A stretch of DNA of 64,000 bases, taken from contig NZ_WBKP01000015.1 of the NCBI RefSeq assembly GCF_009602465.1, positions 1 to 64,000 of the forward strand. The letters are read 5' to 3'. Positions within the stretch are counted from its first letter, which is position 1; each line of letters opens with the position of its first letter. The DNA is from Cumulibacter manganitolerans. GTDB lineage: Bacteria > Actinomycetota > Actinomycetes > Mycobacteriales > Antricoccaceae. A model generated the notes under the pieces. The model was given only the letters and a program-made list of their open reading frames with translations. It did no database searches and was not told where the DNA came from. Both the position numbers and the translations under genes were made by a program. Shown one piece after another: positions 5,134 through 11,489 of this stretch.

Positions 5134-5670
5134 CTACCGGTGCGCCACCCAGTCCTGCCGGCCGATCTCGACGAGGCGGCGCAGGAACGCCATGCCGCCG
5201 GCGCGTTCGGCGTCGCTGAGCTGGTCCACCCAGCGCACCTCCCGCCGGTTGTGCGCGCGGAAGACCTCCTCGAGCCGTTCCCGCCCGGCGTCGGTGAGCT
5301 CGAGCACCCGCCCCCGGGCGTCGCCGGCGAGGTCGGACCGGGTCAGCGAACCCTGCTTCTGCAGCGTGTTCGCCAACGACGTCACCGCCGGCTTGCTCAT
5401 GCCCGTGCGGCTGGCCGCGGCACGCAGCTCGAGCGGGCCGTCGACCCACAGGGTGAAGCACAACCGGAACGCCGACCAGCTCCAACCGGCGGGCCGGTGG
5501 ACGGTCGACTCGATGTCGTAGACGATCGCGTTGGACACTCGATACAGCAGCAGGACCAGCTGCATGGCGTCGATGTCGACGTGCGCCATGCGTTCCTGGA
5601 TGGCCGTGCGCGCATCGGCGATCAGCGACAGGGAGGCGCCCGGCTGCTCGGGGCTCGGATCGTGCGGCAT
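5134..5670 (-). CDS. MarR-family transcriptional regulator, likely regulator of the homogentisate cluster
   Basis: A 178-residue winged-helix protein. The recognition-helix region RTGMSKPAVTSLANTLQKQG and the wing sequence TRSDLAGDARGRVLELTDAG are typical of MarR proteins. It is divergent from the five-gene aromatic degradation cluster starting at 5766, separated by 95 bases containing an AT-rich palindrome. MarR proteins at such sites are commonly ligand-responsive repressors of aromatic catabolism. Here the ligand would presumably be homogentisate or a hydroxyphenylacetate, but that is inference from position. Confidence 0.85.
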   Translation of the reverse strand: MPHDPSPEQPGASLSLIADARTAIQERMAHVDIDAMQLVLLLYRVSNAIVYDIESTVHRPAGWSWSAFRLCFTLWVDGPLELRAAASRTGMSKPAVTSLANTLQKQGSLTRSDLAGDARGRVLELTDAGRERLEEVFRAHNRREVRWVDQLSDAERAGGMAFLRRLVEIGRQDWVAHR

Positions 5671-5765: not shown

Positions 5766-6725
5766 ATGGCCAAGGCATTCGCCTCCAGCGCCGATCTGGG
5801 ACAGAAGACCGAGTCACTGGAGGTTCTCGCCGACGGCGTGTACGCGCTGACGGCCGAGGGTGATCCGAACATGGGCGCGATCGAGGCGGAGGACTTCGTC
5901 GTCGCGTTCGAGTCGCGGGCCACTCCCAAGGCGACCCGGGACTGGCTGGAGCAGCTGCGCGAGCACACCGACAAGCCGGTGCGCTACTGCGTGCTGAGCC
6001 ACTACCACGCGGTGCGGGTGCTGGGCGCGTCGGCGTACGACGCGGAGTCGATCATCACGCACGAGACGACGCGTCGGCTGATCGACGAGCGCGGGCAGGC
6101 CGACTGGGACAGCGAGTACGGCCGGATGCCGCGGTTGTTCCGCGAGCCGGAGACGATCCCGGGCCTGACGCATCCGGACCTGACGTTCACCGAGTCGCTG
6201 GTCATCCCGTTGGGCGGGGACCGCGGCGACCTCGAGCTGCATTACTGCGGCCGCGGGCACACCGCCGGTGACGTCATCGCCTGGGTACCCAAGCACAGGG
6301 TGCTGTTCGCCGGCGATCTCGTCGAGGCGCAGGCCGCGCTGTACACCGGCGACGCGTTCCACTTCGACTGGGCGGACGCGACCCTCGAGCGGGTGAAGTC
6401 GTTCGGGGCCGAGGCGCTGGTCGGCGGCCGGGGCGCGGTCGCGCTCGGCCGGGACGCGACGGACGCCGCGATCGAGCAGACCCGGCGGTTCCTGCGCGGC
6501 ATGATCGAGAACGTCGGTGCCGTGCACGGCCGCGGCGGCTCGCTGAAGGAGGCGTTCGACGCGACGCACGCCGCCCTGGCCCCGGACTTCGGCCAGTGGC
6601 CGATCTTCGAGCACTGCCTGCCGTTCGACGTCAAGCGGCTCTGGGACGAGTACGACGGCAAGGACTGGCCGGAGATCTGGACGGCCGAGCTCGACCGGCA
6701 GGTCTGGGACCAGCTGCAGGACTGA
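5766..6725 (+). CDS. MBL-fold hydrolase with atypical metal motif, first gene of homogentisate cluster
   Basis: A 319-residue metallo-beta-lactamase-fold protein. The usual HxHxDH signature reads SHYHAVRVLG: both early His are kept but the Asp and third His are Val and Arg. GHTAGD and LFAGDLVE, carrying later His and Asp ligands, are intact, while the final His position appears as Arg in GGRGAV. It may bind one metal or have changed chemistry. These substitutions sit in otherwise well-kept surroundings, so they look like a subfamily trait rather than decay. The next gene begins within a few bases of its stop, so it belongs to the operon. A hydrolytic step or ring-fission clean-up role is possible, but the substrate is unknown. 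Confidence 0.8.
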   Translation: MAKAFASSADLGQKTESLEVLADGVYALTAEGDPNMGAIEAEDFVVAFESRATPKATRDWLEQLREHTDKPVRYCVLSHYHAVRVLGASAYDAESIITHETTRRLIDERGQADWDSEYGRMPRLFREPETIPGLTHPDLTFTESLVIPLGGDRGDLELHYCGRGHTAGDVIAWVPKHRVLFAGDLVEAQAALYTGDAFHFDWADATLERVKSFGAEALVGGRGAVALGRDATDAAIEQTRRFLRGMIENVGAVHGRGGSLKEAFDATHAALAPDFGQWPIFEHCLPFDVKRLWDEYDGKDWPEIWTAELDRQVWDQLQD

Positions 6726-6728
6726 GTG

Positions 6729-8279
6729 ATGACCATCCCGCTCGACGTCCCCCGGCACGAGGGCCACGCCGACCTTCCGGTCGCCGTCGTCGGCGCCGGG
6801 CCCGGCGGCCAGACCGCCGCCCTCGCGCTGGCCCGCTGGGGCCTGGACGTCCGGTTCTTCGACAAGCGGGCCGAGCGCGACCCGATCGGGTCGAAGGCGA
6901 TCTGCCAGGCGCGCGACGTCCTCGACGTGTGGGGATCCCTCGGCGCCGGCACCGTGCTCGCGGACGAAGGGGTCACCTGGACCACCGCCCGCACCTACTA
7001 CCGCGGGCGCGAGATCGACTCCTGGCGGTTCGCCGACTCCGGCCGGTCGCCGTACCCGCCGTTCGTGAACATCTCCCAGCAGCGCACCGAGGAGGTGCTC
7101 GACGACTGCCTGGCGCGGCTGGGCGTGCGCTGCCGCTGGGGCGTGCGCATCGAGGAGGTCACCCAGGACGCCGCCGGGGTGACGCTGCGGATCGACGGCG
7201 AGCCGCAGCGGTTCAGCCACGCGGTCTTCGCGACCGGCGCCCGGGGCGTGATCCGGGAGGTGCTCGGGCTGGCGTTCGAGGGACGGACCTTCGACGACGC
7301 GTTCCTCATCTGCGACATCGAGGCGACGCTGCCCGGGTGGGAGACCGAGCGGCGCTTCCACTTCGACCCGGAGTGGAATCCCGGCCGCCAGGTGCTCATC
7401 CACGCGTGCCCCGGCTCGCAGTACCGGATCGACTGGCAGGTCCCCGAGGACTACGACCTCGTCGAGGACGAGCGCACCGGCGGCCTCGATCGCCGCATCC
7501 GGCAGATCATCGGCGAGCACACGCCCTACCGCATCGTCTGGAAGTCGGTCTACCGCTTCCAGTCCCGGCACGTCGAGCAGATGGCCGTCGGACGGATCCT
7601 GCTGGCCGGGGACGTCGCGCACCTGGTCGCGCCGTTCGGCGCGCGCGGGCTGAACACCGGCGTCCTCGACGCCGACAACCTCGGCTGGAAGATCGCCTTC
7701 GACGCCTACGGCTGGGGCGGTCCCGGGCTGATCGACTCCTACTCGGTGGAGCGGGTCGCCGCCGCGCGCGAGAACGCCGAGGTCGTGGACGCGACGATGG
7801 CCGTGCTCGTCCCGCAGGACGACGCGGCGCGCGCCCGCCGGACGGCGCTCCTGGAGGCGGCCGCGTCCGGGTCGGGAGCGCCGATCGACTCCGGCCGGTT
7901 CGCCGAGCCGTTCTGGTACGTCGACTCGCCGCTGACCACCCCCGACGAGAGCCGGCCGTTCGCCGGACGCCCGCCCAAGGGCACGGTGCCGCCGCCCGGC
8001 CCGGGCATCATGCTCCCCGACGTCCGGCTCGCCGACGGCTCCCGGCTGCGCGACGCGGCGCGGCTCGCCATCACGGTGATCGGTCCGCGGGAGGTCGCGA
8101 CCGACGTGCGCTGTCCGGTGGCCCACATCCCCGCGACCGGCCTCGGCGACGAGGCGCGCACGGCACTCGGGTACCGCGACGGCGAGTGGTGGGTGCTCCG
8201 ACCCGACTGCTACGTCGCGGGCATCGCGACCGCCCCCGGGCAGGTCGCGCCCGTCATCCGCAAGACCCTCGGTTTCTGA
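6729..8279 (+). CDS. FAD-dependent aromatic hydroxylase, probable homogentisate-forming monooxygenase
   Basis: A 516-residue class A flavoprotein monooxygenase. The N-terminal dinucleotide fold is VAVVGAGPGGQTAALAL, the middle motif is FATGARGVIRE (a variant of the usual DG motif), and the flavin-ribityl motif is GRILLAGDVAHLVAPFG. It is most similar in layout to 3-(3-hydroxyphenyl)propionate and hydroxyphenylacetate hydroxylases. Since the next gene is homogentisate dioxygenase, hydroxylation of a 3- or 4-hydroxyphenylacetate to homogentisate is the likely reaction. This is inference from context. ATG 6729 has CAGGA about 7 bases upstream; GTG 6726 is an alternative. It follows the MBL gene with a 3-base gap. 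Confidence 0.85.
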   Translation: MTIPLDVPRHEGHADLPVAVVGAGPGGQTAALALARWGLDVRFFDKRAERDPIGSKAICQARDVLDVWGSLGAGTVLADEGVTWTTARTYYRGREIDSWRFADSGRSPYPPFVNISQQRTEEVLDDCLARLGVRCRWGVRIEEVTQDAAGVTLRIDGEPQRFSHAVFATGARGVIREVLGLAFEGRTFDDAFLICDIEATLPGWETERRFHFDPEWNPGRQVLIHACPGSQYRIDWQVPEDYDLVEDERTGGLDRRIRQIIGEHTPYRIVWKSVYRFQSRHVEQMAVGRILLAGDVAHLVAPFGARGLNTGVLDADNLGWKIAFDAYGWGGPGLIDSYSVERVAAARENAEVVDATMAVLVPQDDAARARRTALLEAAASGSGAPIDSGRFAEPFWYVDSPLTTPDESRPFAGRPPKGTVPPPGPGIMLPDVRLADGSRLRDAARLAITVIGPREVATDVRCPVAHIPATGLGDEARTALGYRDGEWWVLRPDCYVAGIATAPGQVAPVIRKTLGF

Positions 8280-9502: not shown

Positions 9503-10291
9503 ATGACCGACACCCTGCTGCACGGCCTGGTGGACGACGCGGGGCTGTTCCCGCCGACCGCACTGCCGATGCGCGATGCCCTGGCCCGCAATGCGAAGGA
9601 CCGCGCGGCACGCGACCCCATGCTCACCCAACGGTTCCTGGTGCCGACCGAGCTGCTCGACGAGCTGCTCGGCCTGCTGCCGGAGGGCTCCGGAATCGAG
9701 CTGGGACTGATCCACGCCGGATCCGGCGCGGAGCTCCTCGACGCCCTGGCGCGCGCCGAGGGCCGCGTGCGCCACGTCGAGCTGAAGGGCGCCGCGGCGC
9801 TGTCCGACGTACCGGACGACCTGCCGGTGTACGTCGAGCCGCTGCGCTTCGACGCCCTGCCCGGGGTGATCGAGGCGGTGCGCTCCGCGGGGCGGATCGG
9901 GCCGACCGGCGTGAAGGTCCGGTGCGGCGGCATCCGCGCCGACCTCTTCCCGACCGTCGATCAGCTCGCCGAGGCACTGCGTGCCGTGGTGTCGGCGAGC
10001 CTGCCGATGAAGGCGACCGCCGGGCTGCACAGCGCGATCCGCAACACGAACCCCGAGACCGGTTTCGAGCACCACGGCTTCCTGAACCTGCTGACCGCCA
10101 TCGACGCGGCGCTGTCCGGCGGCGACGTCGCCGCCGTGCTGGCCGAGCGCGACCCAGCCCGGGTCGCCGAGGCGATCCGCGCGATGGACGAGGACCGGCG
10201 CCGCGCCGTCCGCCACGTGCTGGTCAGCTACGGCTCGTGCAGCACGTCGTCGCCGGTGCAGCAGGCCGCCCGTCTCGGGTTGCGCCCCTGA
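9503..10291 (+). CDS. conserved protein of unknown function in the homogentisate operon
   Basis: A 262-residue soluble protein between homogentisate dioxygenase and fumarylacetoacetase. I do not recognise a characterised family. Distinct motifs are DDAGLFPP (residues 11-18), VKVRCGG (137-143), KATAGLH (170-176), HHGFLNLL (190-197) and SYGSCS (242-247). The spacing of Lys, Cys and His motifs on probable beta-strand ends suggests an alpha/beta enzyme, perhaps a barrel. It has no glutathione-transferase fold and no DinB-type mycothiol isomerase pattern. Its position is exactly where a maleylacetoacetate isomerase would be expected, and no other candidate is nearby. RBS GGGAGAAG precedes ATG 9503. 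Confidence 0.75.
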   Translation: MTDTLLHGLVDDAGLFPPTALPMRDALARNAKDRAARDPMLTQRFLVPTELLDELLGLLPEGSGIELGLIHAGSGAELLDALARAEGRVRHVELKGAAALSDVPDDLPVYVEPLRFDALPGVIEAVRSAGRIGPTGVKVRCGGIRADLFPTVDQLAEALRAVVSASLPMKATAGLHSAIRNTNPETGFEHHGFLNLLTAIDAALSGGDVAAVLAERDPARVAEAIRAMDEDRRRAVRHVLVSYGSCSTSSPVQQAARLGLRP

Positions 10292-10334: not shown

Positions 10335-11489
10335 ATGCCCCAGAACGGCTTCGGACTGGCCAATCTGCCGTACGGCGTGTTCAGCACGCCGGACCGATCG
10401 CCCCGAGTCGGCGTCCGCTACGGCGACGGCGTGCTGGACCTCGCCGAGGCCTTCGGCGAGACCTACTTCGCGACCGCGACGTTGAACGAGCTCATGGCGC
10501 AGGGCCGGCAGGTGTGGGACCGCGAGCGCGCGCGGATCACCCGGCTGCTGTCCGAACGTGCGCCCTCGCTCGTGCCGATCGAGGACGTCACGATGCACCT
10601 GCCGATCAAGGTCGCCGACTACGTCGACTTCTACGCGTCGGAGCACCACGCGAGCAACGTCGGCCGGATCTTCCGGCCGGACGCCGAGCCGCTGCTGCCG
10701 AACTGGCGGCACCTGCCGGTCGGCTATCACGGCCGCTCGTCGACGATCGTGGTCTCCGGGACCGACATCGTCCGCCCGTCGGGCCAGACGAAGGGGCCGC
10801 AGGACGACGCTCCGACGTACGGCCCGTGCCGACGGTTGGATGTCGAGGTCGAGGTCGGCTACATCGTCGGCGTCGGCGCGCCGATGGGCGGTCGCGTGTC
10901 CGGCGCCGAGTTCGCCGACCACGTCTTCGGCTGCGTGCTGCTGAATGACTGGTCCGCGCGTGACATCCAGGCGTGGGAGTACGTGCCGCTCGGGCCGCAC
11001 CTGGGCAAGTCGTTCGCGACGTCGATCAGCCCGTGGGTGGTGCCGCTCGCGGCGCTGGAGCCCGCCCGGACGGGGCCGCCGGCCCGGACCGTCCCGCTGC
11101 TTCCCTACCTGCAGGAGGGCGAGGACTGGGCGCTGCGGCTCGAGCTGGAGCTGGAGCTCAACGGCGAGACCGTCAGCCGGCCGCCGTACGACACGATGTA
11201 CTTCACCGGCGCGCAGATGCTGGCCCACCTCACCGTCAACGGCGCCGCGCTGTCCACCGGCGACCTGTACGGGTCGGGGACGGTCAGCGGCCCCGAGCCT
11301 GACCAGCGTGGCTCGTTCCTCGAGCTGTCGTGGGGCGGCACGGAGCCGCTCACGCTGGCCGACGGCAGCCAGCGCACCTTCCTGCAGGACGGCGACACCG
11401 CGACGATCCGCGGCACGTTCACCGGCGCCGGCGGCGAGCTGTGCTCCTTCGGAGAGGTGACCGGCCGGATCCTCCCGGCGGCCGGCTGA
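10335..11489 (+). CDS. fahA: fumarylacetoacetase
   Basis: Hydrolyses fumarylacetoacetate to fumarate and acetoacetate, the final step of homogentisate breakdown. The 384-residue protein has the full-length FAH layout: an N-terminal SH3-like domain, then the catalytic domain with DYVDFYASEHHASNVG, GYHGRSSTIV, the metal-binding acids in VEVEVGYIVG and LNDWSARDIQAWEY, and the KSF segment. A GAGGAG site at 10320-10325 precedes ATG 10335. It is the last gene of the MarR-controlled operon. The next gene converges on it with only about 30 bases between, and no clear terminator hairpin is seen there. Confidence 0.95.
   Translation: MPQNGFGLANLPYGVFSTPDRSPRVGVRYGDGVLDLAEAFGETYFATATLNELMAQGRQVWDRERARITRLLSERAPSLVPIEDVTMHLPIKVADYVDFYASEHHASNVGRIFRPDAEPLLPNWRHLPVGYHGRSSTIVVSGTDIVRPSGQTKGPQDDAPTYGPCRRLDVEVEVGYIVGVGAPMGGRVSGAEFADHVFGCVLLNDWSARDIQAWEYVPLGPHLGKSFATSISPWVVPLAALEPARTGPPARTVPLLPYLQEGEDWALRLELELELNGETVSRPPYDTMYFTGAQMLAHLTVNGAALSTGDLYGSGTVSGPEPDQRGSFLELSWGGTEPLTLADGSQRTFLQDGDTATIRGTFTGAGGELCSFGEVTGRILPAAG

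What the first reader, a model, noticed from the sequence alone, without database searches (positions are those of the whole stretch)
9503..10291. Unassigned conserved gene fills the isomerase gap in the homogentisate operon
The operon encodes a probable homogentisate-forming hydroxylase, homogentisate dioxygenase and fumarylacetoacetase, but no glutathione-transferase-zeta or DinB-type isomerase for maleylacetoacetate. The only gene between the dioxygenase and the hydrolase encodes a 262-residue protein with distinct motifs (DDAGLFPP, VKVRCGG, KATAGLH, HHGFLN) and no characterised family that I know. It may be a new type of isomerase or another side-step enzyme. The operon context and motifs are seen; the function is inference.
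Basis: partly seen in the sequence, partly recalled or inferred. Interest (0 to 1): 0.68.

Follow-up and report, generated by a model that had tools for sequence, protein, structure and literature searches.

The report
Orphan barrel protein paired with fumarylacetoacetase
A protein family with no name or known function sits directly in front of the last gene of bacterial tyrosine/homogentisate breakdown in three phyla, and it is the best available candidate for the missing enzyme that performs the cis-to-trans step there without glutathione, although this has not been tested at the bench.

Summary
The gene is real: window 9503-10291 (+), 262 aa, 16 bp after a homogentisate-dioxygenase-like gene and 43 bp before a fumarylacetoacetase (FAH). 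It matches no Pfam, NCBIfam or PDB sequence. AlphaFold2 gives a confident (beta/alpha)8 barrel (pLDDT 96), unlike either known maleylacetoacetate (MAA) isomerase type. It belongs to a family, "X", found immediately upstream of FAH: 38 of 47 copies in the window's order, 77 of the 80 best genome contigs, 8 of 8 inspected plasmid loci incl. Priestia, and a cyanobacterium. All 40 X genomes of 101 have FAH; none of the 101 has a maiA match. K138, R140 and K170 are invariant in 129 copies; Cys246 is in 116 of 117 FAH-linked ones and replaced in 9 of 12 unlinked. Best reading: a thiol-cofactor-independent MAA isomerase. Caveats: 25 of 65 FAH genomes lack X, X was lost repeatedly, some FAH-linked copies have lost key residues, and the genome holds 10 mycothiol-isomerase-like (DinB) paralogues elsewhere. 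Function is inferred, not shown.

The parts
9503..10291 (+). X: 262-aa (beta/alpha)8-barrel protein, proposed maleylacetoacetate isomerase
   Evidence: ORF; no family; structure; family and linkage
10335..11489 (+). fumarylacetoacetase (FAH)
   Evidence: TIGR01266 436.9 bits, over cut-off 375.3; PF01557, PF09298
8296..9486 (+). divergent homogentisate 1,2-dioxygenase-like protein (HGO)
   Evidence: PF20510 2.2e-10, PF04209 2.3e-07; TIGR01015 73 bits, far under cut-off
6726..8279 (+). FAD-dependent aromatic monooxygenase, probable ring hydroxylase feeding the pathway (substrate inferred)
   Evidence: PF01494 7.1e-43; NF006002 357 bits, under cut-off 416
5766..6725 (+). metallo-beta-lactamase-fold hydrolase, first gene of the operon
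   Evidence: PF00753 2.5e-08; found with the monooxygenase in relatives
5134..5670 (-). divergent MarR-family regulator (role in this operon inferred)
   Evidence: PF12802 1.4e-06; same position in L055

Best explanation
X is an enzyme of the homogentisate pathway that acts between HGO and FAH, most likely a maleylacetoacetate (MAA) cis-trans isomerase that needs no glutathione or mycothiol. Proposed mechanism: the barrel mouth binds the two carboxylates and the conjugated ketone of MAA with K138, R140 and K170 (with E93, E112, D11/D12). The thiol of Cys246, at the end of strand 8, adds to the cis double bond, the new single bond rotates, and the thiol leaves to give fumarylacetoacetate, which passes to the coupled FAH. 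SHOWN: the gene, the fold prediction, residue conservation, FAH linkage, absence of maiA matches. INFERRED: the reaction, the role of every residue, contact with FAH.
For: Pathway hole: HGO makes MAA and FAH takes fumarylacetoacetate (established pathway), and the operon has no other enzyme for the step between. Linkage: X directly upstream of FAH, same strand, in 38 of 47 X genes of 40 genomes in the order (31 of the 40 loci mapped; the window; 6 more by coordinates), in 77 of the 80 best genome-contig loci of 542 confirmed stretches (one of them a single joined ORF), in 8 of 8 inspected plasmid loci of 23 hit records, and in 12 of 14 genomes with a strong X match in a 246-genome phylum sample, 3 of which are also in the order set. 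Median gaps between domain ends 5, 2 and 17 bp. Reach: Actinomycetota, Bacillota (Priestia, hppD-X-fahA), Cyanobacteriota (HGO and hppD divergent from X-FAH). Co-occurrence: 40 of 40 X genomes have near-full-length FAH, and none of the 36 genomes without it has X (one weak 53-residue match, G002, not counted); Fisher p 4e-11 by genome, 1e-4 by genus, relatedness not corrected. maiA: no match in 101, none over cut-off in 246. Cys246 in 116 of 117 FAH-linked copies, replaced in 9 of 12 unlinked, all one paralogue clade. Gap in print: no MAA isomerase gene identifiable in B. anthracis (PMC4457819, passages) or B. thuringiensis (PMC6193087, passages).
Against: No biochemistry. 25 of 65 FAH genomes in the order lack X, with the rest of the operon intact in close relatives (L089-L092, L097, L098, L107) and no recurring substitute gene found beside FAH. 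X presence changes at least 9 times on the FAH tree, and decayed copies exist, so X is dispensable in some backgrounds. FAH-linked relatives that lost key residues: L220 (K138, K170, Cys246 all replaced), L212 (Cys246 and the first lysine motif), L071 (Cys246 and H176). Three of the nine unlinked copies without Cys246 carry a Cys one position earlier (L052-L054). Mycothiol-type isomerase paralogues exist in the genome. No detectable sequence link to any characterised enzyme.
Confidence: 0.6

Rival explanations
1. X acts in the same pathway but on something else: it repairs or detoxifies side products of MAA/fumarylacetoacetate (for example wrong tautomers or thiol adducts), perhaps by aldolase-like lysine chemistry in a DERA-like barrel. 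The isomerisation itself is done by mycothiol with a DinB-type enzyme, or without an enzyme.
For: Patchy loss of X from otherwise intact operons; 10 PF11716 paralogues over cut-off in the genome; best fold matches are deoxyribose-phosphate aldolases, Z up to 12.9; two invariant lysines on neighbouring strands. S. albidoflavus work lists a mycothiol-dependent maleylpyruvate-isomerase-family gene among tyrosine-metabolism genes (PMC11012174, figure legend).
Against: None of the 14 PF11716 matches lies on the window's contig, and no substitute gene was found to recur beside FAH in X-less operons. X is bound to FAH as tightly as a main-line step. The loss pattern would also fit an isomerase whose reaction runs slowly without enzyme.
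Confidence: 0.22
2. X is a non-catalytic or allosteric partner/assembly factor of FAH, kept next to it for co-translation.
For: Abutting or overlapping genes; one X-FAH read-through ORF of 674 aa in a MAG; a copy without the proposed catalytic residues kept beside FAH (L220).
Against: Charged residues at strand ends (E93, E112, K138, R140, K170) are nearly invariant in 129 sequences, an active-site pattern; 25 FAH genomes do without X.
Confidence: 0.1
3. X is an MAA hydrolase (giving maleate and acetoacetate), a second route beside FAH, as reported long ago for some Bacillus.
For: PMC4457819 cites Crawford 1976 for an MAA hydrolase in some Bacillus, gene unknown (passages).
Against: A near-full-length FAH accompanies X in 40 of 40 genomes of the order and 13 of 14 of the phylum sample; a hydrolase would bypass FAH rather than need it.
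Confidence: 0.06

Closest known systems
Maleylacetoacetate isomerase MaiA / GST zeta (TIGR01262)
   Same: Expected reaction and pathway position.
   Different: MaiA is a glutathione-using GST-fold enzyme (recalled); X is a predicted (beta/alpha)8 barrel, does not match TIGR01262 and occurs where maiA has no match.
Mycothiol-dependent maleylpyruvate isomerase / DinB family (PF11716, Corynebacterium type)
   Same: Solves the analogous cis-trans step in Gram-positives (recalled).
   Different: Helical-bundle, mycothiol-dependent (recalled); X has no PF11716 match and another fold.
2-deoxyribose-5-phosphate aldolase (DERA, TIGR00126)
   Same: Nearest solved folds (most of the top 35 rows, Z 12.0-12.9, 10-19% identity). 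By strand count, X E93 / K138 / K170 on strands 4, 6, 7 parallel DERA D102 / K167 / K201 (DERA residues and strands recalled).
   Different: No sequence relation (hhalign probability 0.1-0.2); X has Cys246 and a KxRxGG motif; different neighbourhood.
Glutathione-independent MAA isomerase activity of Gram-positive bacteria
   Same: The activity expected of X, in Gram-positive bacteria.
   Different: To my knowledge the gene was never assigned; a link with X is inference.

Membership tests
MaiA / GST zeta | match to TIGR01262 | tested here: not met
   P0001 has 0 NCBIfam families at E<=1
MaiA / GST zeta | GST fold (thioredoxin-like plus helical domain) | tested here: not met
   AlphaFold2 model is a (beta/alpha)8 barrel, pLDDT 96.2; a prediction, not a solved structure
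MaiA / GST zeta | MAA isomerase activity | not testable with these tools
   needs an assay
Mycothiol-dependent isomerase (PF11716) | match to PF11716 | tested here: not met
   Pfam scan of P0001 and of 54 members: not among the matches
Mycothiol-dependent isomerase (PF11716) | mycothiol requirement | not testable with these tools
   X occurs also in Priestia and a cyanobacterium, which are not mycothiol makers (recalled)
DERA / class I aldolase | match to the deoC family by sequence | tested here: not met
   No Pfam/NCBIfam hit; hhalign against 15 DERAs probability 0.1
DERA / class I aldolase | (beta/alpha)8 barrel fold | tested here: met
   Foldseek itself gives no match at E<=0.001
DERA / class I aldolase | Schiff-base lysine on strand 6 with helper lysine on strand 7 | tested here: inconclusive
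   K138 (strand 6) and K170 (strand 7) by DSSP of the model, invariant in 129 copies; chemistry not testable and DERA positions recalled
FAH-linked family X (new, defined here) | immediately upstream of FAH on the same strand | tested here: met
   window; family 38 of 47 and 77 of 80

The most novel reading that the evidence does not exclude
X is a third, unrelated protein family for maleylacetoacetate isomerisation: a TIM-barrel enzyme that carries the catalytic thiol itself (Cys246) instead of borrowing glutathione or mycothiol, used in Actinomycetota, some Bacillota and at least one cyanobacterium, and so the missing gene for the old glutathione-independent isomerase activity of Gram-positive bacteria.
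Probability: 0.4. Interest if true: 0.75.

Novelty: new variant of a known kind. Interest (0 to 1): 0.62.

Why it matters
Tyrosine/homogentisate breakdown is textbook biochemistry, yet papers on Bacillus state that the isomerase gene cannot be identified (PMC4457819, PMC6193087; passages). X gives a clonable candidate with a predicted structure and specific residues to mutate.

Tried and rejected
Rejected: spurious ORF (65% identity with the same gene order in another genus); X as a GST, DinB or other named family; DERA homology by sequence; a recurring replacement gene in X-less operons. Clustering of rough ORF calls around FAH gave no credible one; a LanC-like gene follows FAH in two same-genus X-less loci only (L104, L108). 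FAH residues that might compensate for lack of X: no column beats the permutation 95% level. The single-sequence AlphaFold job gave a poor model (pLDDT 54) and was wasted; the alignment-based model is the one used. Foldseek gave no match at E<=0.001. Residue geometry in the model could not be measured, since coordinates are not held. Dropped rows: G002 (E 4.8e-4, 53 residues) and G103 (E 7e-4) were not counted as X. L072 and L083 entered as partial ORFs. The script listed L148, L168, L192, L193 and L083 as not adjacent, because it kept one domain per ORF; the recount with all domains puts them beside FAH (gaps up to 300 bp accepted, largest found 191).

Literature: eight searches showed no paper on this family among the rows listed (2 of 2 papers listed; 21: 20 of 107; 27: 24 of 24; 30: 20 of 80; 76: none found; 77: 15 of 58; 78: 15 of 52; 81: 10 of 22). 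Open-licence PMC only; subscription journals are mostly missing. Papers opened: PMC4457819, PMC6193087, PMC11889516, PMC11012174, passages only. Hagedorn and Chapman 1985 is recalled and was not seen.

Full report
OBSERVATION. The ORF at 9503-10291 (+) encodes 262 aa, starts 16 bp after the HGO-like gene and ends 43 bp before FAH. Operon: metallo-beta-lactamase-fold hydrolase, FAD monooxygenase, HGO-like, X, FAH, with a divergent MarR gene. FAH is certain (436.9 bits against 375.3). The HGO is a divergent type (73 bits against 510.75). The monooxygenase's substrate is inferred. P0001 matches no Pfam or NCBIfam family beyond chance-level E-values, nor do 54 family members in Pfam, and no PDB sequence convincingly.

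FAMILY AND LINKAGE. In the window's order, P0001 found a match in 41 of 101 genomes; I dropped G002 (weak, partial) and count 40. A profile search gave the same 40. I read 65 of 101 genomes as having near-full-length FAH (at least 287 bits); 56 of 101 pass the curated cut-off there. All 40 X genomes are among the 65; none of the other 36 genomes has X (Fisher p 4e-11 by genome, 1e-4 by genus; relatedness not corrected). The 40 genomes hold 47 X genes. 38 have FAH directly downstream on the same strand: 31 of the 40 loci that I fetched and mapped, the window, and 6 by coordinates. Nine do not: eight paralogues in one clade (L047-L054) and G078 (L079). In a 246-genome phylum sample, 14 genomes have a strong X match (G103 dropped; 3 of the 14 are also in the order set), 13 of them FAH, 12 adjacent; G336 has the two on different contigs, and G331 has only a contig-end fragment.

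BREADTH. Of 23 plasmid records hit, I inspected 8; all 8 have X before FAH. Tsukamurella: hppD-HGO-X-fahA. Priestia aryabhattai: hppD-X-fahA-hisC-HGO. Streptomyces Alt3: HGO-X-fahA plus CoA transferase genes. Two Streptomyces plasmids have X-fahA without HGO in the stretch. A search from the Priestia protein added a cyanobacterium, Kovacikia minuta, where X overlaps FAH by 4 nt, with HGO and hppD divergent. Where these records carry a gene for X, it is called 'hypothetical protein'.

COMPETING ISOMERASES. maiA (TIGR01262): no match in the own genome even at E 10, none in 101 relatives at E 0.001, and none over cut-off in 246 of the phylum, where 47 have weak GST matches. PF11716 (mycothiol-dependent type): 14 matches in the own genome, 10 over cut-off, none on the window's contig; not surveyed in relatives. 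So a thiol-dependent isomerase elsewhere cannot be excluded.

STRUCTURE AND RESIDUES. The model from 54 sequences is a (beta/alpha)8 barrel, pLDDT 96.2, pTM 0.92; Foldseek has no PDB match at E<=0.001. VIA-align's top 35 rows are mostly DERA and the Kemp eliminase KE70 (built on a DERA scaffold; recalled), Z 12.0-12.9, rmsd 3.3-4.5, 180-210 residues aligned. There is no sequence signal to DERA. In 129 sequences, K138, R140 and K170 are invariant; E93, E112, D11 and H191 nearly so; by the model's DSSP most fall at or near strand ends. Cys246, just after strand 8, is present in 116 of 117 FAH-linked copies (L071 lacks it) and replaced in 9 of 12 unlinked copies; the nine form one paralogue group that has also lost G174 and G244, so this is probably one event and not nine, and three of them have a Cys one position earlier. 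Among 10 further copies from other orders and classes, L212 and L220 have lost several of these residues beside FAH, and the cyanobacterial copy has Q at the position of H191.

AGAINST. 25 of the 65 FAH genomes have no intact X. Close relatives carry the same operon with X neatly absent (L089-L092, L097, L098, L107), without a recurring substitute that I could find. On a tree of 59 FAH proteins (31 with X, 28 without), X presence needs 15 changes, 9 forced by well-supported branches. Decayed X lies between HGO and FAH in G038 (L100) and before FAH in G078. X is therefore useful but dispensable, which fits an isomerase whose reaction also runs with thiols (non-enzymatic bypass is known for human MAA isomerase deficiency; recalled), but it fits a side-product enzyme too.

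MECHANISM. Inferred: cationic pocket (K138, R140, K170) for the dicarboxylate, Cys246 as built-in nucleophile. Alternative: a lysine Schiff base (iminium/dienamine) in the manner of DERA-like aldolases. The thiol route is favoured because Cys246 largely follows FAH linkage, while the lysines are kept in the unlinked paralogues.

PRIOR KNOWLEDGE. Papers on B. anthracis and B. thuringiensis say that the MAA isomerase gene cannot be identified (PMC4457819, PMC6193087; passages). For Rhodococcus globerulus, HmgA and HmgB were seen by proteomics (PMC11889516; passages). Eight searches, seen as capped listings, showed nothing on this family. A glutathione-independent MAA isomerase activity in Gram-positives was reported in 1985 (recalled).

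VERDICT. A real, uncharacterised family; the best candidate for the missing isomerase; function unproven.

Noticed in passing
window 5766-8279 and equivalents in L055, L062, L124 and others: Two alternative feeder modules stand beside HGO/FAH: a metallo-beta-lactamase hydrolase, usually with a FAD monooxygenase (18 loci), or hppD (18 loci); no locus among the 158 scanned has both. The hydrolase-monooxygenase pair has no assigned substrate.
   Followed up: partly
L047-L054, L191: A paralogue clade of X away from FAH has lost Cys246, G174 and G244 but keeps the lysines; in L047-L051 it lies divergent to an HGO-like gene, in L052 near DUF2470 and cytochrome bd genes.
   Followed up: partly
L175:6980-9001 (+): X and FAH read as one 674-aa ORF in a Sphaerisporangium MAG; either a natural fusion or an assembly indel.
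   Followed up: no
L100:4521-4801; G078:C194:19316-19635: Decayed remnants of X in its usual place before FAH in two genomes that keep another X copy elsewhere.
   Followed up: partly
L104:3504-4736 (-); L108:5974-7266 (+): A lanthionine-synthetase-C-like gene follows FAH in two X-less hppD-HGO-FAH operons of one genus; LanC-like proteins handle thiol additions (recalled), so it may be another solution to the step.
   Followed up: partly
L220:6233-7162 (-); L212:4911-5825 (+): X relatives beside FAH that have lost most or some of the proposed catalytic residues.
   Followed up: no
L210:2991-8189: Tyrosine-catabolism cluster (HGO, hppD, X, FAH) on a cyanobacterial plasmid (Kovacikia minuta) that carries no annotation in the collection.
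   Followed up: partly
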